This document shows, piece by piece, positions 24,901-63,714 of a DNA stretch of 64,000 bases (positions are counted from its first letter, which is position 1; each line of letters starts with the position of its first letter). The notes below the pieces were generated by a model, which had not been told where the DNA came from, made no database searches, and saw only the letters and a program-made list of their open reading frames with translations. The stretch lies in assembly GCF_000003815.2 (NCBI RefSeq), contig NC_049994.1, positions 12,542,994 to 12,606,993 on the forward strand, written 5' to 3'. Both the position numbers and the translations under genes were made by a program. The stretch is from Branchiostoma floridae. Lineage: Eukaryota; Chordata; Leptocardii; Amphioxiformes; Branchiostomatidae.

Positions 24901-27900
24901 TTTCAGCTCTCATTTTCTTAGATGATTTTAACTTTCACATTGTAATACTAAATGCGCAACCCCTTATACAACAGGTCCAATCACATTTATCCGCCAGGTT
25001 GAATAATTCCGCCACTTAGAAAAACAGTGTGCGTGAGTGATCTCTAGTGCAGTCTCCGCAGGTATGTACAGTTTAGATATACAGGAGTGCATGTAACTGG
25101 GGGACACTGTTCTGGAGATCTCTTAAGATGCAATTTTTGCGGGTGGCAGGTATATAATTTTTTTGGGTGGCAGATATATATTCAACCTAGATCTTACATT
25201 TCTTTCTAAATTTGATATAGAAAAATAAATGAAGTACACATATTTGTACTTGTTTGTTTGTTTACTTTGCACATTAAAAACATTATAACAATGAAATAAA
25301 GAAAACTAATTAAAAGTGCACATTTACCACAGATGTCAGAGCCATCTGGAAGCTGTAGTGTCTTGCGAGGCCGAAGTCCGCCAGCTTGACCTGCCCGGTA
25401 CTGGTGACCAGGATGTTCTGTGGTTTGAGGTCGCGGTGCACCACTCTGTGCATGTGCAGAAACTCCACCCCACTTAGCAGCTGATGCATTATGTCCTGGT
25501 GGGGAAAAAGAAGCAGAATTTAACATTTGAATTTAACATTTGAAAGCCAGGGTAAAATGCATCAATGAAGGTTAGAAATCCACTTAGCTGCTGATGCATT
25601 ATGTCCTAGTGGAGGGAAAAAAATCAGAAATTAAAGGCTAAACATTTGAAAGCCAAGGTGAAATGCGTCAATGAAGGTAAGACATCCAGGTAATACAGTA
25701 AGAAACGCCAAAAAGTAGTTACTTAAGTAACTGGATATGATTGTGAAGAGGGTCAGACGTTTCAAACACCATCCGATTCCAGTGTCACTGATGAAAGACA
25801 TTGGATGGTGTCTGAAACATCCAGGTAATAAGATACTGTACTAAAAAAAAAAAAACAGTTACTCAAGCAAGTGGATAAAATCATGATTGTGGAAAGGGTC
25901 AGATGTTTCAGACACCATCCGATTCCAGTGTCACTGATAGAAGACATTGGAGGGTGTCTGAAACATCTGACTGTTTCCACAATCATATCCAGTTGCTTGA
26001 ATAACTGCTTTTTAGGAAGGTGAAATGGTTTCTTCCCCATGTTTTAGAGTGATGAGCTGAGTATGTCAGCATTAGCCATGGGTACCATTGTAGCTAGCAC
26101 AATGCTACGGTCACAATACTTCTTAGAGCCAATAGCTGGAACTTTTCCTATTTTGTGCTACCAGTAAATTTCCCCACGCCCTCTAGCAACATCATGCCAA
26201 ACTGCAGCCTTCTTGGCAATCCAACAGCCTGGAAGCCAGACTGTAGTCAAGTGTGTTGGGTTCTTTTACATGTAGAGGTTTCACACTAGTGAATATACCT
26301 ACGTGAAGCTAACCCTTATGCATGCGCCTTAAGTCACCATCCGAAGGGTGGGCCCCAGTTGCCTAGTTATACTAGAGGCCTTCTCAAGATTGTCTTGAAT
26401 ATCTGAAGTGTACATACCTCAGGATTACTGATGCTGCATTGGCACATCCCTTACTTGTGTTTCTCCTCATGTGGCGGTATTATGGCACCTGGTGGAATTA
26501 TGTGAGTTGATGTTACACTATAAACACCAGAAACGTACCTTTATTCTGTCGGGCCCGAGCCCAGGTGCAGGGCACTTCTCCAGGTATGTGTGCAGGTCCT
26601 GGTCCACATGCTCAAACACCAGGGTCAGCTTGGTCTCCTTCTCTGCTACTGTCCCATGGCAGATGTCAAGGAGTCTGGAGATGGAAGGAAAGACATTTCT
26701 TATTGAAATGTTCACATCAGGTTGAAAGCATAGCAGTCTGAAGAGGAATTCATCCATAAACTTTACTTGCTATGGCCCTAATTTCAAACCTAGGCAGTGG
26801 GGATCAGGGTAAAACTTGCATGTGCTGTGGGGGAATCGTGGGTAGCCCCAATAATAGCCCAAACTCCTGCTCCCCCAACAAGAAACAGACACCGACTTGG
26901 ATGGTAGGTGATACGAAAACATACGGGATTGAGATTCCAATGCTTTCTGCAAGGAGGCGCAGCTGCATGAGATAACTTGCTCTGCCGTATGCAATGCTCG
27001 AAACCCCCAAAACCGCGGCCTCCGCCAACCCGTTCACACAATGGTACATAAAAGCTATGAGGCTGCACTAAAACAGTAATCTACCACCCAAAAATTGTCA
27101 ACGTAACATGTCCAGCACACGAGATACGGAGACCAGCAGCTATGCTGCAGTGCCAAGGAAAGCTGTCAGGTGGCACCTTAATCTTATCATGTTAGGTGAA
27201 ACCACGCACCGAATATGAGAATCCATCTATGGCTTCTTGAATTACACTGTTAATCCATAAATTACACACTGTTATACTGTTACAGATGCTTCCAAAAGCA
27301 TAACCTTCTTAGCCAGAATTCCTGTCATAACCCCAGGTCTATTTCGACACATTGTGAGCATCCTTCTAAAGACTCCCACCAGGGTACCACACTACAAACA
27401 TGATAACATGGCCTCCCCTGGGTTCCGCCACAAAATACTGGGCATTCTTCTCAGATCAGCTCCCAAATCTGGACCAGCTGCAAGTGAGGGGGGTAAAATG
27501 CTGAGACACCTTACATCATACATGATGTGCAATTAAAACTGCCAAGAAGACCACTCAGGAGATCAATACAATTTGGTCAACAGGATAGTGTTCACCATTG
27601 TCAGGATTAGCAAAAAATCAGCTCACATTGGGCAGGTGGTCTTTTATCATCTTTAAATGTTTTTTTCTTCAGCAAAGTGATTTACTGGAAGTTGTGAAAT
27701 ATCAAGTAGTCATATGTATTTTCAATTCTCACAGCGAGGCGAGGTCTATAAATGTTTTTCAAAAGGTCTTGCTTCAAGCATAGTTTCACTTTTTCTCCTT
27801 CTCACTTTTATTCCCAATCAGGTGTGCAACTTAATTCTTTGTGATCTTTCCAACTTTCACTGCAGACTGTCTGGACTGTAACTTTTAGCAAACTTTAATG

Positions 27901-30900
27901 GTCAGCCAGGCTGATATTAGTTATGAGAAGAGTCAGTAGGGAGAGGGTAACCCCCCCCTAGAAGCATCATGACCTATAAATCTTGGGTGAGCACCCTGGG
28001 AACTTTGCCACCTTACTGACAGGTAATCAGATATACCAGATAAAATTCCTTGAGGTATCTTCTTATCTACCCAGTCCATCTAAGAAAACAAACTCATACA
28101 TTTCAAGTATCTTTCAATATGCCACCATTTGAAGAGGACCTGCATGGGGGTTCCCAACAACACCTTTATGATGAATTTGATGCTTTCCTTATACATCACA
28201 GGGAGTTAAAATAACTTGACAACACCTTACAGAAAAGGGCATGCAGATAGTCCTGAGGGTCTGCATGCCTTTTTCCGTTAAGCGTTGACAAACAGTCAAC
28301 CATCTTGCAACCTTGGCTGAGGACAGAAAAGGGTGGAAAACTTATGTTGATGGATGTGCTGCCCCTACGGCCGGTGAGGCTATGGGACCGGTGAGGTGAG
28401 GTGAGAGGTTACGAGCCATTTTAATTCACCGTTAATCGTTACCGACCCGCTCTAATTCAACGTTAATCGTTATCGGTATATTCTTCGTGAAGCGTTATTG
28501 GTCGTTTCAATTCAACGTTAACCGTTATTTGTTATTCCGAATTCACCGTTAAGCGTTACCAAGACATTCTTCGTAACCCGTTATACACACGAAGTCAAAT
28601 GCCAGATAGAACCCCGGAAAATGCAGGAAATGGCGTTTCAAAGGGTCCAGATTTCAAAATTTTCTCCGAGCCTCCCGGCCTTCAGCTCTGGACAGGGTAA
28701 AATATGTTGCGGAAGCGTCGCCCTCAAAAACTTTATCACTCATACAGATTTCAGTGTAAACTTAGCTTAGTTTCGGGCAAAAAGTACTCCTAGAATGCAG
28801 AAAATGAGGTTTCTCCGGACCTTCCTTGCGACGGCTGGCGCCTTTGGCGCTCACGATGACATGGTGAAAATATGTTAGGGGCGTGGGTAGGCACAAAAAA
28901 ACTTTTCTCTCTAATAAAAAGTCATTTCATTTAGCTTCGTCTTACAGCAAAATGTGTCCTTCAAAATGCAGCAAATGGTGTTTCAGACGGTCCAGATTTT
29001 AATTTTCCCGGACTTATATTGCAACGTCTCGTGCCTTCTGAGCTCGAAATGGTAAAATATGTCGGGGGCTCTGGGGGTGGAGGCCAAAGCTATAATCATT
29101 GTGTAATTTGATGAAAATGTCAAAATCAACCTAGCTTAGTCAGTCGGCAAAATTTGCCGAAAATGCAGGAAACAGCATTTAAGAGGGTCTTGATTTTAAG
29201 ATTTTCCCGGGGGAGCATACCCCTGGACCCCCCTGGGATGCTTCGCGCCTTCGGCGCTCCATGTGCTGAAACAATCGTTCAATCCCTCCATAAGACATTT
29301 GCTGCCGCCGTCTCTGTGGCGAGCCGGGAACTCTGCCTCCGTCAACTTACAGATGCCATGGACATCGTCCCTGTCATTCCTCCGGATTCTGGGCACCTTT
29401 TGCTTTGTCATTAGTCGGATATCTTCCCCCATTGATATAACTACTCTAGCGTTGTATGAATAGGAATGCACGTCAATGTTACTTTCAACGGTGTTATGTT
29501 TTGTAACTCCTTCTGAATTTACCGTTAAGCGTTACCGGGCCTCCTGAATTTACCGTTAACCGTTACCGGGCCTCCTGAATTCACCGTTAAGCGTTACCAA
29601 GACCCCCCCATGCAGACCCTCAGTCCTGCATTCTAAACTTCTTGATTTTCTTCACCTGTACAAGTGACTAGCTCTACATTTGTTATTTTGTACATAAAGA
29701 CCACCTGACCAATGTGACCACTTTTTGGTGGTCCCTTTAAAGTTCGACAACTCTTCCCATTGACACATACATTTCTGTAGTGACCACTTTGATTCTCCAC
29801 ACAAACCAGATTTAATCAGTTCACTGAGTTTTCTTCTTTGGTAGTTTTGACCACAATCGTGAAGACTTTCCGATGAATCATAATTACGGACCAGAAGTAT
29901 TGAAGTTGGCGTGGGAATAGGATAGCCACTTTGGTCAGGCCTGCTCCAGGCTAGACTTACATGTAGTTCTGAAGTATGTTGATGAATAGCTGGGATCACT
30001 TCTCATTTAAGCTGGGTATGTGCGGTATGTCCAGTATGCATGTAAACCATGCAGGGGTTAGGTCACCAGGGGACTCCTGGACAAGCCTATTGTTACCTTC
30101 CTACCTGAGGTTTTATGTGTCCTAGAAACGAACCATAGCCACGAATTCTACAGAAAGGAAGGCGACCACTTATGAGAAAAGGAAAGGCAAAGAGTTTTGG
30201 TCACAAAAACTTCTGGATGTTACACTGTGGGAGTTATCATATATAATCACAAGGGGACTCCTGGACTAGCCTATTGTTACCTTCCTACCTGAGGTTTTAT
30301 GTGTCCTAGAAACAGACCCTCACTACAAACTCTTACCAATCTTACAGAAAGGACTGTTTTGGTCACAAAAACTTGTATTGTTACACAGTGGGAGTTATCA
30401 TAATCACCAGGGGGACTCCTTGACACTTTGTGAGTGCCCAATAACCTTCATCTTCCTATTGTAACTTCAGATAACATAAATAAGAAATGACCAGGTACAA
30501 AGTATTAGTCATGAGACTGTGCAACGTTAAGCCGTTGGCTTATAATGAGCTAAGTTCTAAGTTCAAAGGGTCATTCTTCACAATAACAGAGCTTAAAATA
30601 CATTTTGACAGCCAAAGTACCTGGCAGTGACCCTGAAAGGTCAACTGAAGAATAGAACAAAGGAAAGACTAACAAGTTGAATCCTTTTGGACTACACCAT
30701 TTAAAAAGAGGGGTGAAGACACGATTTCTCAAAATAAATAAATAAAATAGAAGAACACAAATGAAAGCTAATGTTTACATATGGTTAACAATATCAAACA
30801 AATTTTTCAATGACCGATCTTGAATTTAACCCACCCCGAAGGCTATGATGAGCCAATTTGTTTTGGCCAAAATAAAATGGTTACAAAAAGATCTATATTT

Positions 30901-42900: not shown

Positions 42901-45900
42901 CTCTCTCGTTGCGTGGGTTTAATGACACGATCAGAATTGATTACATCATCGCGACGGTATCCCCATCTGCCTTTCCGCATGCTTGCGCTCACCGGACATA
43001 TGCTCTGACCTGTACGTTTAAAAATTGGCCCTTTACATAATTACACACGTGCCTCTGGGCTTAGACACACACTGACAACTTACCCCCAAATGACCCCCAC
43101 ATACACACCTGAAATGACTACTTGATTGACACTAAGGGTGTCTGTGTGGCGCAACGGCTAAAGCGTTAAAATCAGAAGGTCCTGAGAGTTCGATACACGC
43201 CATGCCCCTGCCCTCATGATGGTGGATTGACGCCCACCGAGCCTCAAGGCTAATCTGTCTAAAGTTTAGTAAAGGTGCCCAAAACACCTAGGGATTTGGT
43301 GCTGCCAGTGTGTCAACATCTAAACACTTGCCACTAAGACCCGTGAATTTTTTTTTTTTTAATGACTACTTGATGATTGGCATTACAGTCCAACTGAAAT
43401 CTGCGTCTTGAAACCTTTTTCCAGTCAATTTGCTTTATTAACCGACGTCTATGTAGACGCCTTTAATTGAGTCTTAATCCTAAGAATTCACCAATCTAAA
43501 AGAAGTATGGCTAGAGCCTAAGACTTCTGTAGGAAAATAATCTGGGATTTGAAGTTGCTTCAAGTTGCTTTGATGTAAATGAAAAGACGCTTTCTGCTGT
43601 CGAAGTTGTGATGAGTCCTAATGAGGCTAGTTTAGTCGGGGGACAATGAAAGGCCGGGACCACTTTGTAAGTGCACAATGATAGTGTAATTGGAGGGATG
43701 TTCATTGGACAGAGCACAGGCCAATATTGGGGAAAGAACAATTCAAAGAAAGCTTATTTGTCAAATACAAGTTTTCTACAACAAATAATGAATTAACAAT
43801 TCTCTCTTTTGGAGAAGCATTCTTTTTCCAAGAAAAGACTGTTCAAACCCAATGGATGTTGTATCTGATCTGAGATGGTTTAGAAAAATTTGAGTGATTT
43901 CAAACTTATCACAGCAAACATGAGGTTACATGAAATCCACTTCTCTGCTATTGCCTGCTTTGAAGAGACCTTATCCAATTCCTGAATAAAATTGTTGTCA
44001 TTTCAAATGAGGCATAGATGCAAAAAATTTAAACACTACTCAAAATCAAATGTAGACTTTTCAAAGTTTCTTACTCCATCTTTCAACAACTTCAAAAGTA
44101 GGGCAATTGAGTACAAAACTTGCAAGAAAAGCTAACAACAATTATGTATGCCACTTTGACAGTTAATGTCAACGTAGGTGTTTATCTGTATTTTTGAATA
44201 GATGAGTCAGCTAAGTATTGGGATTTACCTGTATCTAAGTATTGCACACCTTTGGTGTAACAACAGATTAGAAGACAAAAAACAAAAACATGCATGCAAG
44301 TATCTTTCTATAACAATCCATGAAAAGTCTTTATCAACTGTGACAACAGAAAGTTGAGAAATGACTTTATGGCTTGGCCACTAATTACGTGTATCCTGTT
44401 TAACCCTGCGTACTTATCTTATGTGTGTTATCCATGGTGACAATCAACCCAAATATTAACTTAGGCGGTGGTTTAAATACCTTCCTCCTACGCTGTGCTG
44501 TCATCCACGTACTGGAACAAAACAACAACTGCAAATCCTACCTGACAGCTTCTACATTTGGATTTTCTTATTTTTGTTGTACAATATGACTGCCAGACAG
44601 TACCACTATATTCTGGTAAAGTTAAACTGTAATTTCCACAACGAAAATTGGACTTACGGTTACCCAAATTTTGACTGTAAACAGCTCAAGTCTTTGTTAA
44701 AGTTGTTCAGTCGAAAATTTGGTAAGTCCAATTTTCGTCGGAAATTACATTTACAGTTCAACTTTTTCAGAATGTCTTCTACCAACACAGAAGAACTTTC
44801 AAGTTCAGTATCACTATATATTTGTTAAGACTGTAGAAGTTGGAGCTAGTAACCTTGCACGACAAGTTACATTTTAGCACCACGGACAAAAACAACGCAA
44901 AAACCCTCTTCAAGTTCAACAATATGGTTGCTACGGATGTTGAGAGGAAAAGGCGCAGAAAAGCGAGAAAAAACAATGGAAGTAGAACATAGAAGTCAAG
45001 ATATTGTACAATTGAAACAACCAGAGGGGCGAGTAAGAACAGAAAGAAACAACACCCCGACTCCCGGGATTCGAACCCGCGCCGAACCCGGGCAGCCGGA
45101 TCACAAATCGAACGTGCAAACCGTTCGGCCATAAAGGCTTAAGCCGTTAGGCGTCTTCGGTTTAGCAGTCCTTGAACACCACTGTTACACTACTCCCCCT
45201 TTTCTTTTCAAGATTCGTCCTCGAATCTCCGAGATCGACATCCCTGTGTGGCACATACTAGCCTGTTAATCACAGGGCCGGCGTGGGAACCAGTGAAACA
45301 ACCAGAGGGGCGAGTAAGAACAGAAAGAAACAACACCCCGACTCCCGGGATTCGAACCCGCGCCAAACCCGGGCAGCCGGATCACAAATCGAACGTGCAA
45401 ACCGTTCGGCCATAAAGGCTTAAGCCGTTAGGCGTCTTCGGTTTAGCAGTCCTTGAACACCACTGTTACACAATGATAAAATAATGGAAGCAGGATGGAT
45501 GAAAACTTGGTGCGTGAGTAGAGGGCTGGAGGTGTGGTTGGAGGCCTCAGGGCTTGAATACTATCTTTGAAAGTTGATAACAATTCAGTAAGGCAAAATT
45601 TCACCACTTTCGAGTCTTCACTATAGTGTATAGTGACTCTAACATTAGTTGTAGTCACAATTTCAGGCTTTTTACAGCTTTTCGCAACATAGAGAAAGGT
45701 GGAATTGCAGGTGTGGAAAGAACCCCAAACAAGCAAAATTTCCAAATTTTTAAAAATGACAAGATTATACTGAGACCGAGACTTCACATTACCCATTGCT
45801 TTAATATAGGGATAGTCCTGCTATTTATATATATATAGGTTATTTTCCTGGTTATGTTTGCCATAGATGAAGTTCTTTCAACATCTCTTCTGTCTGCAGT

Positions 45901-48935: not shown

Positions 48936-51137
48936 GCTCGGGAGTGAGTGCGCCCTGTCCCGAGAGATCTGCAGCTACCACGCGGTGACTGGCGGCGAGC
49001 CCTTGTGAAACAGTATCCGGCGGCGCACGAGGCCACACACACTGAAAACCCGCTGCAGAACCGGCCGGTCTACACTGCAGCCCACGCCGCGAACAGACGA
49101 CCCCGCAAGCTTTCTGTCATGTAAATTTAAATCTCAAATCAAAATATGCAGGAATTTTCGTCCCTTTTTTCCCAAACGGGCCCCCGCAATACAAGATTCA
49201 CAACTTCAACTCTTTGTGAGAACAAAGTTTTTGAAGCATGTGTCAGCTTTAGGCCGATAGGGCAGGTTTACATATATTTTGGTTTCTCTGGGGATTCCCA
49301 AATCGAATGTTTCCGCATTCCAGGTAAAATTTTGAAGGCTTTCTTTGGTTGAACGGGCCGACCTGGAACCGACCCAAACCCGATCAGCTGATCTGGAAAC
49401 TGCCCCGGTCACCACGGAAATTACACCAGCCTTGGACTCGGAAAAATTCCCATTCATAAAATCTCCGCAATGCATTCAGTCTTCATTCATTCATCACAGC
49501 CATTTGTTGACATCCTCCCCGAACGGCCCCTTTCCGAAGTCCCAGAGCATGCTCTCCGGCGAAGTCGATCTTTTCCGGGGCAAAGAACGACAAAGAAGTT
49601 GCCAGACTCTTCCTCCAAAGTGTCCTGAATATACTTGCCAGCTCCTGAGGCTGTCGTCTGACGGCTAACTTTGTCTTGCTTGGGCGGTGATCGGATCCCT
49701 TTGGCCGACTTGTGTCCTGAAAAAGTGAGTCAAATCAGAGAATCTGCGAAGAAAGAAGTCGGCATATCAAAGGCAATCCTTTCTTCGCAATGTAAACAGA
49801 CATTTTGTAGTGCGACCGCTCGCAAACTTCCCCTCACCGTGTCCTTACGAGCCGCTAAAACTAAACAAAAACACTTTAAAGCAGTAGAACAAATATTCAA
49901 CTTACCGTGGGGCGCAAATTTTACCACTTTTACCTCGCGCGCGATTTTTTTCAAATATTTTAAAGGTTTTCTTGCTCGCGAGAACGCTGTAGGTAGGGAG
50001 CTAATTATGACTTTGAAAAGCCCACGTGGATTTTTCTCTTGACCCCTGTCCGCTGTGATTGGTCGAGCCTAACACGTCAGATAATACAAATGATTTATGT
50101 CGCTAGGGGAGGTGTTTCCCGTCGTGCTACAGGAACAGGAGTTTCCCTCCAAACAAAAACATTGCTGACGCCGGAATCCTGATCAGAAAAGCACCTAGCA
50201 TGGCCCAAAACTTCAGCATAAGTGCGAGTGCGACAGAAAAGGGAACTTTAGACTGAGTATAAAGAATCGCGGGGGTGGTAGTTTACCTCAGACTCCACCC
50301 CTTTGTCGTCTGTAGACTTTCCCGCCACCCCCGGCCAAGGGGTCAACGGTCACGCCTCAATTGGTACATATTGGTATGCAGCAACACAAAGACAACTTGT
50401 GATGCCCAACTTGTAGTTTATTAACTTCCTTGCAAGTTCTGATTCCCGGGTTTATTGGAACCACATGTACTTGTTCGAGAGTAATAGGCACTGCGTGAGT
50501 CTTGCGGTCAAACTGGGTGTGTGCTTGCTTGCGAAACTTTTCCGTTTCGTGGGTTGTTCTTGAAGCGAAGGCCGCGGGTTTTGACCCCATTGTACTTCAC
50601 AAATATTGGAACATTCTTAACACCTGTGTGCCACAGTCCGACACTGTGTCGACGGTAACGTGGTGACCAAGAGGGGCCACAGAAATCAGGATGCAATTTA
50701 TCAGAGCCTGTGTCGAGCTCTAGTCCCTCGGCGCTTTGATCAGTTCGTGCGACTGACACATTTGCTTTGAATCAAGTCCAAAGTAATGTGCCCAGAAATT
50801 TTGGGATCGTGTGTCCAGATGGTCTGACCGATAACGAACTCCCGCTGAAGGGTAGGTAACGGATGTTTTCTCTGCCGTCCTGGGTGGCACAGCGGCCACG
50901 GCCCCACTACTCTCCTGCTACCCACTGGTCATGCCGCAAGGTCGACAGGTGGATAGAGTAGAATGATAAATTATGATGTCAGGTAGCCTAAGACCCGGGC
51001 CTATAAATAACAAAGAAGACAGACCCAGGACAGCCTCCTTCGCAAACTTCCAGAGCGGTTTTCTTTTCAGCGCTCTCCAACTGAGAAAAAAAACGCTTCC
51101 GCTCCAGAAATCTGCAACGAAGTATACTCTTCAGTTT
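48936..51137. other. CDK4/6 5' flank, non-coding
   Basis: This holds the CDK4/6 5' UTR and promoter region. Sequence just upstream of the ATG is GC-richer than the intron. No TATA box is obvious in a fixed position. Open frames at 49345 and 49671 show no family resemblance and no splice support. From about 50050 to the gap nothing is recognisable. Confidence 0.5.
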
Positions 51138-51237
51138 NNNNNNNNNNNNNNNNNNNNNNNNNNNNNNNNNNNNNNNNNNNNNNNNNNNNNNNNNNNNNNN
51201 NNNNNNNNNNNNNNNNNNNNNNNNNNNNNNNNNNNNN
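51138..51237. other. Assembly gap (100 N)
   Basis: Exactly 100 Ns, the usual placeholder for a gap of unknown size. Frames crossing it are meaningless. Confidence 0.99.
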
Positions 51238-51393
51238 AGTAATGACTGCTCGTATTGTCTTCAAGTACCGCAAAGTAAATTGAGTTTCAAATATTTGCGG
51301 AGGAATGGCGTGTTTCTCCAGGATCATGAGGATGGACGAGAGACATTTACTGAGTGACATTTCTGTTGTACATTTTTGTTTTCGATCTCCTTC

Positions 51394-53260
51394 AATCAAT
51401 CAATCAATCAATCAATCAAATGGTTTATTCAGAATAAAAACAAGGCACTGGCAACCAGAGGTTGAATTACGGCCTTGTTGTACAGCACCTCTGTGCTACA
51501 AATACAATAAAATCACGTTACATATATACGATACAATACAGTTGCATTGTTAACATTAATTTCCATTATTTTTGTTCAGCAGGCATATCATATATGGGAT
51601 TGCACTTTTTTTGTAGCGCTCAGTTCTGGGTTTGACAGTGTCTAGTTGGTTGCTGGCCCTTGTGGCTCTCCCAGTGATAGCCCCCCGGGTTTGTGGTAGC
51701 CAGTGACGGAAGTCCGGTGACTGGAGGAGTTTCTGGGCGAACTGCAGGCAGAGGTGGTCTCTCCTTTGATCTAGGGTAGACAAGTTCAGAATCCGGCACG
51801 CCTCTGGGTATGAAGTGTAGGCAGAGCGGAGTATTATCCGACATGCGCGTTTCTGGATGAATTCGATCCTTCGTCGCTGTCTAGCAGTTAGTCCAGGATG
51901 CCAGGCAGGCGCTGCGTACTCACAGCTTGGACGGACGAATGTTTTGTAGCAGGTAAGTATGTCATCCCTAGACAGATCGAACTGGTTGAGTTGTTTAAGC
52001 ATAAATAGCTTTCGGTTGCCTTGTTTGACAATGTGGTCTACATGTGCGTTCCAACCAAGGTCAGCCTGGATGAACAAGCCGAGGAGTTTAACTATCTTGA
52101 CCTCCTCTAACGGTTGGCCAGCAATAGACAGGGGTGGCAGTGGAAGGACTGTTCTCGTAAAGACCACGTGCATGGCTTTGCATTTTTGGGGGTGAAGTTT
52201 CATCTTTCTTGTGGATGCCCATTGGTCGAGGCTGTTGAGGTCCGTTTGAATTGTTGAGGTGTCCCGGATCAACCTGCTCTCAGCTAAGTTAAGATCATCC
52301 ACGAACTTCCACCTCCTAGCAAGGGAATCCTCACTTGCACTGTTGATTAGAGCAAGGAAGATTAAGGGGCCTAACACTGTTCCTTGTGGTAGGCCACAGG
52401 TCGTCTCCCTCCAATCTGAATACGTTCCCTTGTACATCACTCTCTGCTTTCTAGTGGACAGGAACGAACATACCCATTTGGCGAGCGAGCTTCGTAGACC
52501 TGCTCCAAGTAGGCTTGAAATGGCTATGCTGTGGTCCACAAGGTCGAACGCCTTGGCAAAATCCGTAGTTATCAGCGTTGTTATTGTCTCCCTCTTATCT
52601 GCTGTTCTAGCCAGTTGGTCAATTAAATCAACGAGGCAGTGTGTCGTAGAACGACCTGGTATGCAACCAAACTGGTTTGGGTCAATGCTGTGCTTGATGT
52701 CAGAGTACAGATGTTTCGAGATGAAAGTTTCCGCTACTTTTGCTAGGGTAGGTGTCAGGGATATGGGTCTAAGTTCGCTGATCGACGGCGGGCGCGTTTT
52801 AGGTAGTGGTATGATATTTGCCTGTCGCCATTGTTCTGGGACGACCCCCTCCGATAGTGAGGCATTCAATATGGACGTTACTGGTGTAGAAATCTCATAG
52901 GCAAAGCACTTGATGATTCTGTTGGAAAGACCGTCCGGTCCTGCGGCTTTGTTCACTTTGACGTGTTTCAACTTTTCGTACACTTGCCACGGCTGCACCT
53001 CGTCCAAAGGCCTAGCTGGGAGAAATGTTGGTAGTCTAGTGTTGTCCAGTGGGTCGAGTGAGCAGGTTATTGTGCACAGAGCATTGTTTACTGCGTCAGC
53101 GACAGCCTTGTTGTCTCCTGGTGGTGCACCTTCAACGTGGAGGGTGAGACCTGTTCCTGACGTGTTCGTCATGACCTTGATCTGCTGGTACCATGTCCTT
53201 AAGCTCCGTCTCTGACAAATCACCTTTTGAATCCAATAAAGGCTTCAAAAACGATAATTG
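51394..53260 (-). mobile_element. 5'-truncated non-LTR retrotransposon (CR1/L2-like)
   Basis: On the minus strand a reverse-transcriptase frame is followed by a 3' UTR of about 160 bp and an (ATTG)n tail at 51394-51422. A short microsatellite tail is typical of CR1/L2-group LINEs. The endonuclease part is absent. The 5' edge is uncertain: coding-like sequence appears to continue in another frame to about 53260. The next sequence upstream is a fragment of a different repeat. Confidence 0.85.
51556..53223 (-). CDS. Reverse transcriptase of the LINE (5'-truncated)
   Basis: A 555-codon open frame with no true start at its left end (first codon GTG). It contains KAAGPDG (92-98), LRPISLTP (151-158), the catalytic DFAKAFD (221-227), GLPQGTVLGP (277-286) and FVDD (307-310), the equivalent of YxDD. 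The C-terminal thumb region carries R-RRIEFIQKRA, typical of CR1/Jockey-type LINE proteins, which copy RNA into DNA at a nicked target. The upstream 35 bp read LLDSKGDLSETELK in a different frame, so a one-base frameshift near 53190-53200 is likely. It lacks the endonuclease and is probably inactive. Confidence 0.88.
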   Translation of the reverse strand: MICQRRSLRTWYQQIKVMTNTSGTGLTLHVEGAPPGDNKAVADAVNNALCTITCSLDPLDNTRLPTFLPARPLDEVQPWQVYEKLKHVKVNKAAGPDGLSNRIIKCFAYEISTPVTSILNASLSEGVVPEQWRQANIIPLPKTRPPSISELRPISLTPTLAKVAETFISKHLYSDIKHSIDPNQFGCIPGRSTTHCLVDLIDQLARTADKRETITTLITTDFAKAFDLVDHSIAISSLLGAGLRSSLAKWVCSFLSTRKQRVMYKGTYSDWRETTCGLPQGTVLGPLIFLALINSASEDSLARRWKFVDDLNLAESRLIRDTSTIQTDLNSLDQWASTRKMKLHPQKCKAMHVVFTRTVLPLPPLSIAGQPLEEVKIVKLLGLFIQADLGWNAHVDHIVKQGNRKLFMLKQLNQFDLSRDDILTCYKTFVRPSCEYAAPAWHPGLTARQRRRIEFIQKRACRIILRSAYTSYPEACRILNLSTLDQRRDHLCLQFAQKLLQSPDFRHWLPQTRGAITGRATRASNQLDTVKPRTERYKKSAIPYMICLLNKNNGN

Positions 53261-62000: not shown

Positions 62001-63714
62001 ATGAGCCAAATAGCTGCTGCACAGAACCTGGGCGCCGACGACGGCCTGAAAAATGCTGCCAAATATCTGCAGGTATCTAAAGAAAAATAAATGGAAATAA
62101 CAGCACTGTTCATTGCATATACATTACCTGTAATATGTTGTTAAGGTCAGGGTAGAGATTGGGATCTGGTACAATCAGCAGTTTCACCTCTAGAGATACT
62201 TATCAGAACCTCTGCTACAATCAGGATGATAGAAATTCATTAGGGTGGTCTCCAATTTATAAATCCTCCATATGTAAATCCAAGTCAATCTATCGATGTG
62301 AAATGACTCATGAGTCAAAATCAAAAACTGTCTTTTTAAGGCCCTGCTTGGATATCTTTGATTTTGCCATATGGTAGTCTCTACATGATATAATGATTTG
62401 TACATGTTTGGTCTGCATAACCAGTCAAATGAGTAATTTTTTTGCAGTTCTTATATTTAATATGTTTATTTCAGCAAGCGGCTGGTGTGTTCACACACAT
62501 CAAGGAGTCCATGGCAGGGCCCTTCCAACAGGTGGTGACCCCTGACCTCTCCCTGGAGATGCTGAGCACCCTGTCTGTTGTCATGTTGGCCCAGGCACAG
62601 GAGGCCATCCTGCTCAAGTCTATACAAGGTATGTACACAGCCAGGGAATGGGTTCTTGAATAGTTTCATCAGGTTGGTACGTCCAGGGAATGGATTTTTT
62701 TTTTGTGATGACTCTGAGGCAGAGCTGTTTTCTCAGATCTGAACTTTTTTTTGAAGGAGTTATAGCCAGTTGCTATGTTACAATGTGGGGCCGCGTAGCA
62801 CAGTGGTAGTGTATTCAGCCTGTGACTGAGAGGTCGTCGGTTCGAATCCGCCTGCCGTGTTGCCGGTCTTGTGCCCTTGGGAAAGGCACTTTACACGACT
62901 TTTCTCACTTTACTCAAGTGAAAAATGAGTCGTCCCTCGGACAGGACGTTAAATGGAGGTCCCGTGTATGGGGAGATCCATACCCCATGCACGTTAAAGA
63001 ACCCCCACACGTGCGATGGTGCAGTGTGCGTTGGTGCAAATCCTTCTGTTGGAAGTTGGTGATTCACTTCAAATCACCCGGACGGGTGTGTCACCCCGTA
63101 AGGGGCGGTATAACCCGTCATTGTGCGAACATGTGCGAACATGTATATAGGGCTCCCTTGGAAATCAGTTACTACGTTAACTGAAGGGACTACCCCAAAG
63201 ATCAATAAATAAATAAATGAATAAAAAACAATGAGGGAGCTTCAGGTGTGCCCAACTGGCCGAGGCTTTTACAAGGCCAGGCCTCAGCTAGTTGGGCGAC
63301 CTTGGCTGCCTGTATTGCCAGCCAAACAAATAGGTAACGTGCCCGTTAGATAAATAAATAGATAAGCTTCAGGTATGAAACTTCTCAACTGGATTATTCT
63401 TAGCGGGAGGTATAGAGGAGACCCGGTGAGCTTAGCTAAAAACATGAGCCGTAATGAAGCTGCATCAAGTAGACAGTATTTTTTTTCCTCTGGATTATTC
63501 TGGTGAGGTAAAGCAGTATGTAGTGAAAGAAAAGTCTGAACTGGACAGTGATGTAACACAGAAGCTTCAATTCCATGGTTGAATTTTATGTTGTTCTTTT
63601 GCAGACAAGATGAAGGAAGTCATCATCGCAAAGTTGTCCATGCAGGCGTCTGACTTGTACTCTGATGCCATGAAACAGGCACAGAACCCACACTTTGGAG
63701 ACTTACTCCCAAAG
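59022..63714 (+). CDS. PDCD6IP: ALIX / PDCD6IP, N-terminal Bro1 part (partial)
   Basis: Exons 59022-59233, 60029-60083, 61643-61712, 61945-62072, 62475-62628 and 63605-63714 give the first 243 residues; the gene continues past the window. All introns are GT-AG with matching phases. The product aligns along its length with human ALIX: LKKSSEVDL near the start, KYYDQLCAIEAK, FTWYDAFDQG, CVLFNIGALMSQIAAAQNL, AGVFTHIKE, VVMLAQAQEAILLK, then DKMKEVIIAKL. This is the banana-shaped Bro1 domain, which in ALIX binds the ESCRT-III subunit CHMP4; ALIX works in multivesicular body formation, cytokinesis, membrane repair and exosome release. The V domain and proline-rich tail lie outside. The ATG context (ATC-ATG-G) is good. 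A possible in-frame microexon lies between the second and third exons. Confidence 0.95.
60586..60612 (+). CDS. PDCD6IP: Candidate 27-nt ALIX microexon
   Basis: Preceded by a pyrimidine tract ending TTCAG and followed by GTAAGG. It keeps phase 0 at both ends and would insert EDEPPTPYQ after residue 89, between TENQ and IRVNFTW. The human protein has no such insert in its main form, so this would be alternative or lineage-specific. Confidence 0.55.
60640..60769. mobile_element. Short member of the TAATCTCC-end MITE family
   Basis: TAATCTCCAAGCAGAT with GGAGGTTGTTAT at the left is inverted as ATAACCTCC and ATCTACTTGGAGATTA at the right. It is 130 bp and has a different interior from the other copies. 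It lies 27 bp after the candidate ALIX microexon. Confidence 0.75.
61357..61565. mobile_element. TA-flanked MITE with GCGGTGG motifs
   Basis: TACTGTAAAAGCA on the left matches the inverse of TGCATTTACAGTA on the right. The interior repeats GCGGTGG, TTCGCGGT and their complements (CCACCGCGAA). TA-ended TACTGTAAA termini suit a Tc1/mariner-type element. A related fragment with AAACCACCACGAAAATTTC lies at 61850-61910. Confidence 0.75.
62786..63227 (+). mobile_element. tRNA-derived SINE, complete
   Basis: The head has an A box (TAGCACAGTGG, about 62796) and B box (GGTTCGAATCC, about 62839). Then come a central domain with CCTTGGGAAAGGCACTTTA, GGACGTTAAATGGAGGTCC and CACGTTAAAGAACCC, and a tail of AATA repeats. 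ACAATG flanks it on both sides (62780-62785, 63228-63233). It lies in an ALIX intron; degraded copies of the same central domain are at 16900, 26245 and 35325. Confidence 0.85.
63240..63365. repeat. Hairpin plus AATA tail, repeat fragment
   Basis: CCCAACTGGCCGAGGC is roughly inverted as GCCTCAGCTAGTTGGG, followed by CCTTGGCTGCCTG...CCAGCCAAACAAATA and an ATAAATAA tail. A similar piece (GGCAGCCCTGGCT, CAGCCAATCCAACAAATAAA) lies at 9525-9590. This looks like the 3' part of a retroposon. Confidence 0.4.

What the first reader, a model, noticed from the sequence alone, without database searches (positions are those of the whole stretch)
45013..45470. Young TRIM whose LTRs carry a tRNA-like Pol III promoter
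A 458-bp element has every hallmark of a miniature LTR retrotransposon: 177-bp TG..CA repeats with about one difference, a CAAT duplication, a tRNA-Glu-like primer site one base from the 5' LTR, and a polypurine tract at the 3' LTR. Each LTR also holds a TGGCCGAACGG A box and a perfect GGTTCGAATCC B box, 44 bp apart, on the element's sense strand. Plant Cassandra TRIMs carry a 5S RNA promoter in their LTRs; a tRNA-like version in an animal would be a parallel invention and would let Pol III make its RNA. I know of no described lancelet family like this, but that is only my recollection.
Basis: partly seen in the sequence, partly recalled or inferred. Interest (0 to 1): 0.88.

Follow-up and report, generated by a model that had tools for sequence, protein, structure and literature searches.

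The report
Lancelet mini-retrotransposon with tRNA-like promoter
A 458-base mobile element in a lancelet carries a tRNA-like promoter in both of its end repeats; it is one of many copies, belongs to a kind of element (Helenus) published in 2024, and two sister copies have even captured the tRNA that primes their copying.

Summary
45013-45470 is a 458-bp TRIM on the minus strand: two 177-bp LTRs (one difference), 104-bp interior, CAAT duplication, primer site one base from the 5' LTR, polypurine tract, A box and perfect B box in each LTR. It is a family: the window's own genome (513 Mb, Branchiostoma, probably B. floridae) gave 42 LTR and 40 interior matches, 40 candidates being scored per search. 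Of 55 loci examined, 49 were testable and 44 have identical 4-bp duplications. The kind is known: Kojima 2024 (PMC10886601) described Helenus, TRIMs with tRNA-derived LTRs; lancelets are not in its main text. New here: two copies hold a reverse copy of tRNA-Glu(CTC) at the primer site, one complete, which names the primer; the window's LTR difference is a family polymorphism and cannot date the copy; eight loci are three-LTR composites with intact duplications, four of them with outer LTRs closer to each other than to the middle one. Pol III transcription is inferred.

The parts
45013..45470 (-). Complete TRIM of Helenus type, 458 bp, non-coding
45294..45470 (-). 5' LTR, 177 bp, TGTAACAG...TTGTTTCA; T at LTR nt 106
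45013..45189 (-). 3' LTR, 177 bp; C at LTR nt 106
45471..45474 (.). Target site duplication CAAT, right copy
45009..45012 (.). Target site duplication CAAT, left copy
45278..45292 (-). Primer-binding site TGGTTCCCACGCCGG; 14 of 15 letters identical to the complement of the tRNA-Glu(CTC) 3' end captured in L020/L021, the other base compatible with a G:U pair; base 45293 separates it from the LTR
45193..45209 (-). Polypurine tract GAAAAGAAAAGGGGGAG, followed by TAG and the 3' LTR
45402..45412 (-). A box TGGCCGAACGG, 5' LTR
45348..45358 (-). B box GGTTCGAATCC, 5' LTR
45121..45131 (-). A box TGGCCGAACGG, 3' LTR
45067..45077 (-). B box GGTTCGAATCC, 3' LTR

Best explanation
[quoted passage not shown] Proposed working: Pol III, recruited by the A and B boxes of the 5' LTR, starts some 10-25 bases upstream of the A box (range partly recalled for tRNA-type promoters), reads across the 104-bp interior and through the 3' LTR, and gives a short RNA with repeated ends (inferred). 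A borrowed, probably Gypsy-type, RT and integrase use it (inferred from 4-bp duplications and the published pattern): mature tRNA-Glu(CTC) annealed at the primer site starts the first strand (supported by two captured copies), the polypurine tract starts the second strand (inferred from place and sequence), and integration makes a 4-bp duplication (seen at 44 of 49 testable loci). Because the RNA is so small, several molecules may be copied together; strand switching would then give the discordant LTR pairs, three-LTR composites and captured primer that are seen (inferred).
For: Anatomy. Family: 42 LTR matches and 40 interior matches, 40 candidates scored in each search out of 1100 and 457. 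Duplications identical in 44 of 49 testable loci of 55 examined, 35 different sequences. A box exact in 104 and B box exact in 105 of 112 LTRs covering them. Primer site, letters 2-17 of the interior: of 60 interior hits (L064, L065 left out as duplicates) 44 carry the window's letters, 8 another variant, 3 match the captured tRNA over the first 15 letters, 3 are single variants, 2 do not cover it fully. tRNA-Glu(CTC), antisense, starting at the primer site: complete in L021 (ARAGORN 980-1054; Rfam 61.8 bits), 5'-truncated in L020 (Rfam 46 bits). The features tested agree with animal Helenus in PMC10886601.
Against: No transcript was examined. In three diverged LTR types the A box keeps only 5, 5 and 6 of 11 letters, against 11, 10 and 10 of 11 for the B box. 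Absence of TTTT from the sense strand looked striking in a naive shuffle (11 of 5000) but not when the LTR-interior-LTR plan is kept (488 of 10,000); 7.4% of same-length window stretches lack it too. Two other LTR types contain TTTT at nt 55, and the nt-58 deletion creates one (seen in L044); both sit badly with a start as far up as nt 34. No autonomous partner was found. No tRNA at default thresholds.
Confidence: 0.93

Rival explanations
1. A tRNA-derived SINE (or a tandem pair) moved by a LINE.
For: The unit has tRNA-type A and B boxes; a tRNA-derived SINE-like element lies in the same window at 62789 (Rfam tRNA 37.2 bits).
Against: TG..CA ends, PBS and PPT, 4-bp duplications (44 of 49 testable), an interior or captured tRNA between LTRs, primer tRNA captured at the PBS.
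Confidence: 0.02
2. An ordinary Pol II TRIM whose LTRs contain a dead tRNA or SINE insertion; the boxes are passengers.
For: No tRNA at default thresholds; A box letters not specially kept between LTR types; two LTR types carry TTTT just before the A box; no transcript data.
Against: None of five TATA or poly(A) motifs searched is on the sense strand, weak evidence in so short an element; B box kept in the three other LTR types compared; LTRs with tRNA-derived boxes recur in many hosts (PMC10886601).
Confidence: 0.17
3. For the LTR differences: they are mutations since insertion.
For: nt 106 is a CpG, a site prone to C-to-T change.
Against: T at nt 106 in 42 of 107 LTRs. In 41 loci with two full LTRs (L066, whose middle LTR is of another type, included; L064 and L065 left out) nt 106 differs in 9, while the other 30 CpG positions together give 17 differences; nt 58, no CpG, differs in 8 (the LTR-picked part of the sample favours such mixed pairs at nt 58). 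L063 has a 5' LTR with 26 variants from the query against 3 in its 3' LTR, inside one duplication.
Confidence: 0.07
4. For the discordant LTRs and composites: gene conversion or unequal exchange after insertion rather than strand switching during reverse transcription.
For: Tandem Cassandra arrays are attributed to both routes (PMC7215508, passages). In L018 and L031 the outer LTRs differ (7 and 9 differences), and in L021 the middle LTR, over the letters it has, equals the first while the outer two differ at nt 106.
Against: Crossover between copies at different loci would mismatch the duplications; yet 11 of 13 discordant loci match by the strict end rule (the other two not testable there) and 8 of 8 composites match. 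In 4 of 8 composites (L026, L056, L058, L066) the outer LTRs are closer to each other than to the middle one, as canonical reverse transcription of the whole unit predicts (in L056 by one site only); L023 has three identical LTRs and says nothing. Conversion is not excluded.
Confidence: 0.35

Closest known systems
Helenus (Kojima 2024, PMC10886601), collective term TRIMp3
   Same: TRIM with tRNA-derived A and B boxes in each LTR; PBS for the 3' end of a tRNA (tRNA-Glu is among the bivalve primers); PPT; 4-bp duplications in animals; length within 311-1263 bp; tandem arrays are reported for the zebrafish family.
   Different: Host: lancelet terms do not occur in the main text nor in its distribution table. 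Sequence relation to published families could not be tested (consensus sequences are in supplements, not readable here). A captured complete primer tRNA and three-LTR composites of mixed LTRs are not in the sections read.
Cassandra (plants)
   Same: TRIM with a Pol III promoter in the LTRs; multi-LTR tandems (PMC7215508, passages seen).
   Different: 5S rRNA-derived promoter, not tRNA; plants.
Ajax (nemerteans, PMC10886601)
   Same: Animal TRIM with a small-RNA promoter.
   Different: 5S rRNA-derived; 5-bp duplications.
PbTRIM (harvester ant, PMC3532108)
   Same: Animal TRIM with 4-bp duplications and a tRNA primer site.
   Different: No tRNA-like promoter is mentioned in the passages seen; primer site matches tRNA-Leu.

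Membership tests
Helenus | Short element with two LTRs (311-1263 bp in the paper) | tested here: met
   458 bp, LTR 177, interior 104
[quoted passage not shown]
In other LTR types of the family the A box is weaker
Helenus | PBS and PPT between the LTRs | tested here: met
Helenus | 4-bp target duplications (animal families) | tested here: met
   44 of 49 testable loci identical
Helenus | Primer is the 3' end of a tRNA (animal families) | tested here: met
   tRNA-Glu(CTC) captured at the PBS in L020 and L021
Helenus | tRNA-like part mostly does not encode a working tRNA | tested here: met
   None at default thresholds; RF00005 not reported
Helenus | PBS shared with a Gypsy element of the host | not tested
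   No search for an autonomous partner was made beyond the interior search, whose 40 listed matches are near-identical TRIM interiors
Helenus | Sequence similarity to a published Helenus family | not testable with these tools
   Supplementary consensus sequences not readable
Helenus | Transcription by Pol III | not testable with these tools
   Also without experimental test in the paper
Cassandra | 5S rRNA-derived sequence in the LTR | tested here: not met
   No 5S family among the five matches on 45000-45200 at E<=10; tRNA-type boxes instead
tRNA-derived SINE | Single unit without LTRs, PBS or PPT | tested here: not met

The most novel reading that the evidence does not exclude
In this family reverse transcription is habitually multi-molecular: tiny Pol III RNAs are copied several at a time, composites of three LTRs are transcribed through their middle LTR and reproduce as units with regenerated outer LTRs, LTR pairs are mixed at birth, and the primer tRNA-Glu is sometimes copied whole (in L021 to its first base) and built in, leaving an intact tRNA-Glu sequence inside the element. 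The L021 joint would then mark the RNA 5' end at LTR nt 34-35, 24-25 bases upstream of the A box: evidence from the genome itself of where a Helenus transcript starts.
Probability: 0.35. Interest if true: 0.66.

Novelty: new member of a known kind. Interest (0 to 1): 0.52.

Why it matters
It extends a recently named kind of element to cephalochordates, between the fish and invertebrate records. Two sister copies supply what the founding paper inferred from complementarity: the primer tRNA itself, copied in. It also warns that LTR-LTR differences cannot safely date such elements, because mixed LTR pairs are common among the copies examined.

Tried and rejected
The TTTT-absence test was dropped after a fairer control. 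ARAGORN at low thresholds is useless (320 of 500 shuffles hit at 50%). Exact scans of viral contigs, the search for related loci in viral contigs (133 pattern matches, none confirmed) and the first genome-contig scan found no copy; the one genome-contig hit (Lyngbya, L001) is 23 bases without further LTR similarity and I take it as chance. A chance translation of the element found one JGI metagenome protein, P0121, 81% over 36 aa; its residues 2-5 fit the same PBS-LTR junction read in another frame, so it may be an independent copy, but its DNA could not be read; a last protein search added nothing. Paper searches; listings were capped (for example 20 of 227 papers, 10 of 362); none of the rows seen is about a lancelet TRIM with tRNA-like LTRs; one lancelet transposon paper (PMC5802833) was checked by term and has no TRIM or tRNA mention. 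Not settled, because the genome search was mostly unreachable: empty sites, genome-wide solo LTR counts, an autonomous partner, a SINE ancestor, further tRNA captures. No solo LTR with a duplication was among the 29 loci, but these were picked by LTR score.

Full report
Observation. 45013-45470 holds two 177-bp direct repeats, 176 of 177 identical, around 104 bp, with CAAT on both sides. The sense strand is the minus strand of the window. There the element reads TGTAACAG...TTGTTTCA, C, TGGTTCCCACGCCGG (primer site), interior, GAAAAGAAAAGGGGGAG TAG, then the second LTR. Each LTR holds TGGCCGAACGG (nt 59-69) and GGTTCGAATCC (nt 113-123), 43 bp apart. None of 20,000 dinucleotide shuffles of the LTR held such a pair. 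The tRNA-like part is degenerate: no tRNA at ARAGORN's default, no RF00005 at E<=10; at 90% of ARAGORN's threshold it is reported, against 2 of 500 shuffles. No other copy lies in the window.

Host. The 562-aa RT ORF at 51556-53244 is 77% identical, over 74% of its length, to a Branchiostoma belcheri protein. The genome holding the window has 513,431,437 bases in 431 contigs. Its contig C14 is 21,813,864 bases, the length of the longest contig listed for a protein named Branchiostoma floridae (P0119). B. floridae is therefore likely, by inference.

Family. The LTR search gave 42 matches and the interior search 40, with 40 candidates scored in each out of 1100 and 457; these are lower bounds. 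I examined 55 loci: the window, 28 chosen through LTR matches and 26 through interior matches; both sets favour close copies. Of these, 49 had at least two LTR hits and both ends defined; 44 have identical 4-bp duplications, of 35 different sequences; the five others are L013, L019, L044, L045, L064; six loci were not testable (L011, L027, L029, L046, L050, L060). L063, L064 and L065 share flanks at 97-99% and are segmental duplicates of one insertion, so the 44 include one pair that is not independent (L063, L065). A stricter count (ends exactly at LTR nt 1 and 177) gives 39 of 45, with the truncated copies L011 and L029 included.

Captured primer. In L020 and L021 the LTR is followed, at the primer site, by the reverse complement of tRNA-Glu with anticodon CTC. 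In L021 ARAGORN finds the tRNA at 980-1054 and Rfam scores it 61.8 bits; in L020, lacking its 5' part, it scores 46 bits, and ARAGORN does not report it. In L021 the copy runs to the first base of the mature tRNA and then joins LTR nt 34-35; in L020 it stops short and joins LTR nt 149. Both have matching duplications. The simplest account is that plus-strand synthesis ran on along the annealed primer and then switched template; recombination with a tRNA-Glu gene at the primer site is not strictly excluded. This makes tRNA-Glu(CTC) the likely primer. The window's primer site matches it in 14 of the first 15 letters, the other being G:U-compatible. If the L021 switch went to the end of a minus-strand strong-stop DNA, the RNA began at LTR nt 34-35, 24-25 bases upstream of the A box. 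That is one event. Against it: LTRs with the nt-58 deletion and two other LTR types have TTTT at about nt 54-58, which such a transcript would have to cross.

LTR differences. The window's single difference is nt 106, T in the 5' LTR, C in the 3' LTR. Across 61 LTR hits of 29 loci, T occurs in 23 of the 59 that cover the site. Over all 55 loci, 13 of the 50 with two or more LTRs covering the site are discordant at nt 106, 11 of these with matching duplications by the strict rule and two not testable by it; among the 39 loci of the interior search, 9 of 38 (the duplicates L064 and L065 are still counted there). The canonical scheme makes both LTRs alike, so these pairs were mixed at birth or by later conversion. 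In 41 loci with two full LTRs (L066 included, L064 and L065 left out), 14 pairs are identical, 13 differ at one site and 14 at more.

Composites. Eight of 55 loci have three LTRs: L018, L021, L023, L026, L031, L056, L058, L066; all eight have matching duplications. In L021 a captured tRNA, not an interior, lies between the first two LTRs. The outer LTRs differ by 0 in L023, L026, L056 and L058, by 1 in L021 and by 2 in L066. The middle LTR differs from the outer ones by 2 in L026, 1 in L056, 5 in L058, and is of another type in L066: four loci in which the outer pair is the closer one, as reverse transcription of a whole composite would leave. L023 has three identical LTRs and says nothing. 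Three do not fit: in L021 the truncated middle LTR equals the first over its length while the outer two differ at nt 106, and in L018 and L031 the outer LTRs differ by 7 and 9.

Other LTR types. I compared the 5' LTR of L063, the middle LTR of L066 and an old copy in L038 with the window's LTR. Before the A box they keep 41, 38 and 41 of 58 letters; in the A box 5, 5 and 6 of 11; between the boxes 39, 19 and 31 of 43; in the B box 11, 10 and 10 of 11; in the block after it (nt 124-163) 38, 34 and 29 of 40. The B box is the best kept; the A box is not. The primer site is kept beside different LTR ends.

Known kind. Kojima 2024 (PMC10886601; abstract, methods, results, discussion, tables and legends read, passages of the introduction) defines Helenus by the same features, finds 4-bp duplications and tRNA 3'-end primers in animals, proposes Gypsy partners, and groups it with Cassandra and Ajax as TRIMp3. 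Lancelet terms do not occur in its main text. Ten paper searches, with capped listings, showed no lancelet case; the supplements and Repbase were not readable, so absence from print is not proven.

Verdict. A new host for a known kind, with unusually direct traces of how it is copied. Shown: structure, family, duplications, captured tRNA-Glu, mixed LTRs, composites. Inferred: Pol III transcription, Gypsy help, multi-molecule reverse transcription, RNA start.

Noticed in passing
62789-62860 (+), body to about 63155: tRNA-derived SINE-like head (Rfam tRNA 37.2 bits) with a non-tRNA body; useful for contrast.
   Followed up: partly
51556-53244 (-): 562-aa open reverse transcriptase ORF (RVT_1), apparently of a non-LTR element, closest to Branchiostoma belcheri proteins.
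   Followed up: partly
44610-44773: Long imperfect hairpin about 240 bp left of the TRIM (DNA fold of 44600-44790, z-score -8.95); MITE-like.
   Followed up: partly
within 51067-51399: A run of N in the window (seen as X in an ORF).
   Followed up: no
L066 550-717: Middle LTR of another type whose tRNA-like core differs strongly (19 of 43 letters kept between the boxes) while much of the rest is kept; the promoter core may be exchangeable.
   Followed up: partly
P0121 (JGI metagenome protein, 56 aa): Chance ORF that seems to cover a related LTR and its primer-site junction on a 5,686-bp contig of unknown origin.
   Followed up: partly
25737-25967 and 30063-30333: Two-copy direct repeats of 85 and 87 nt, 92% and 89% identical.
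   Followed up: no
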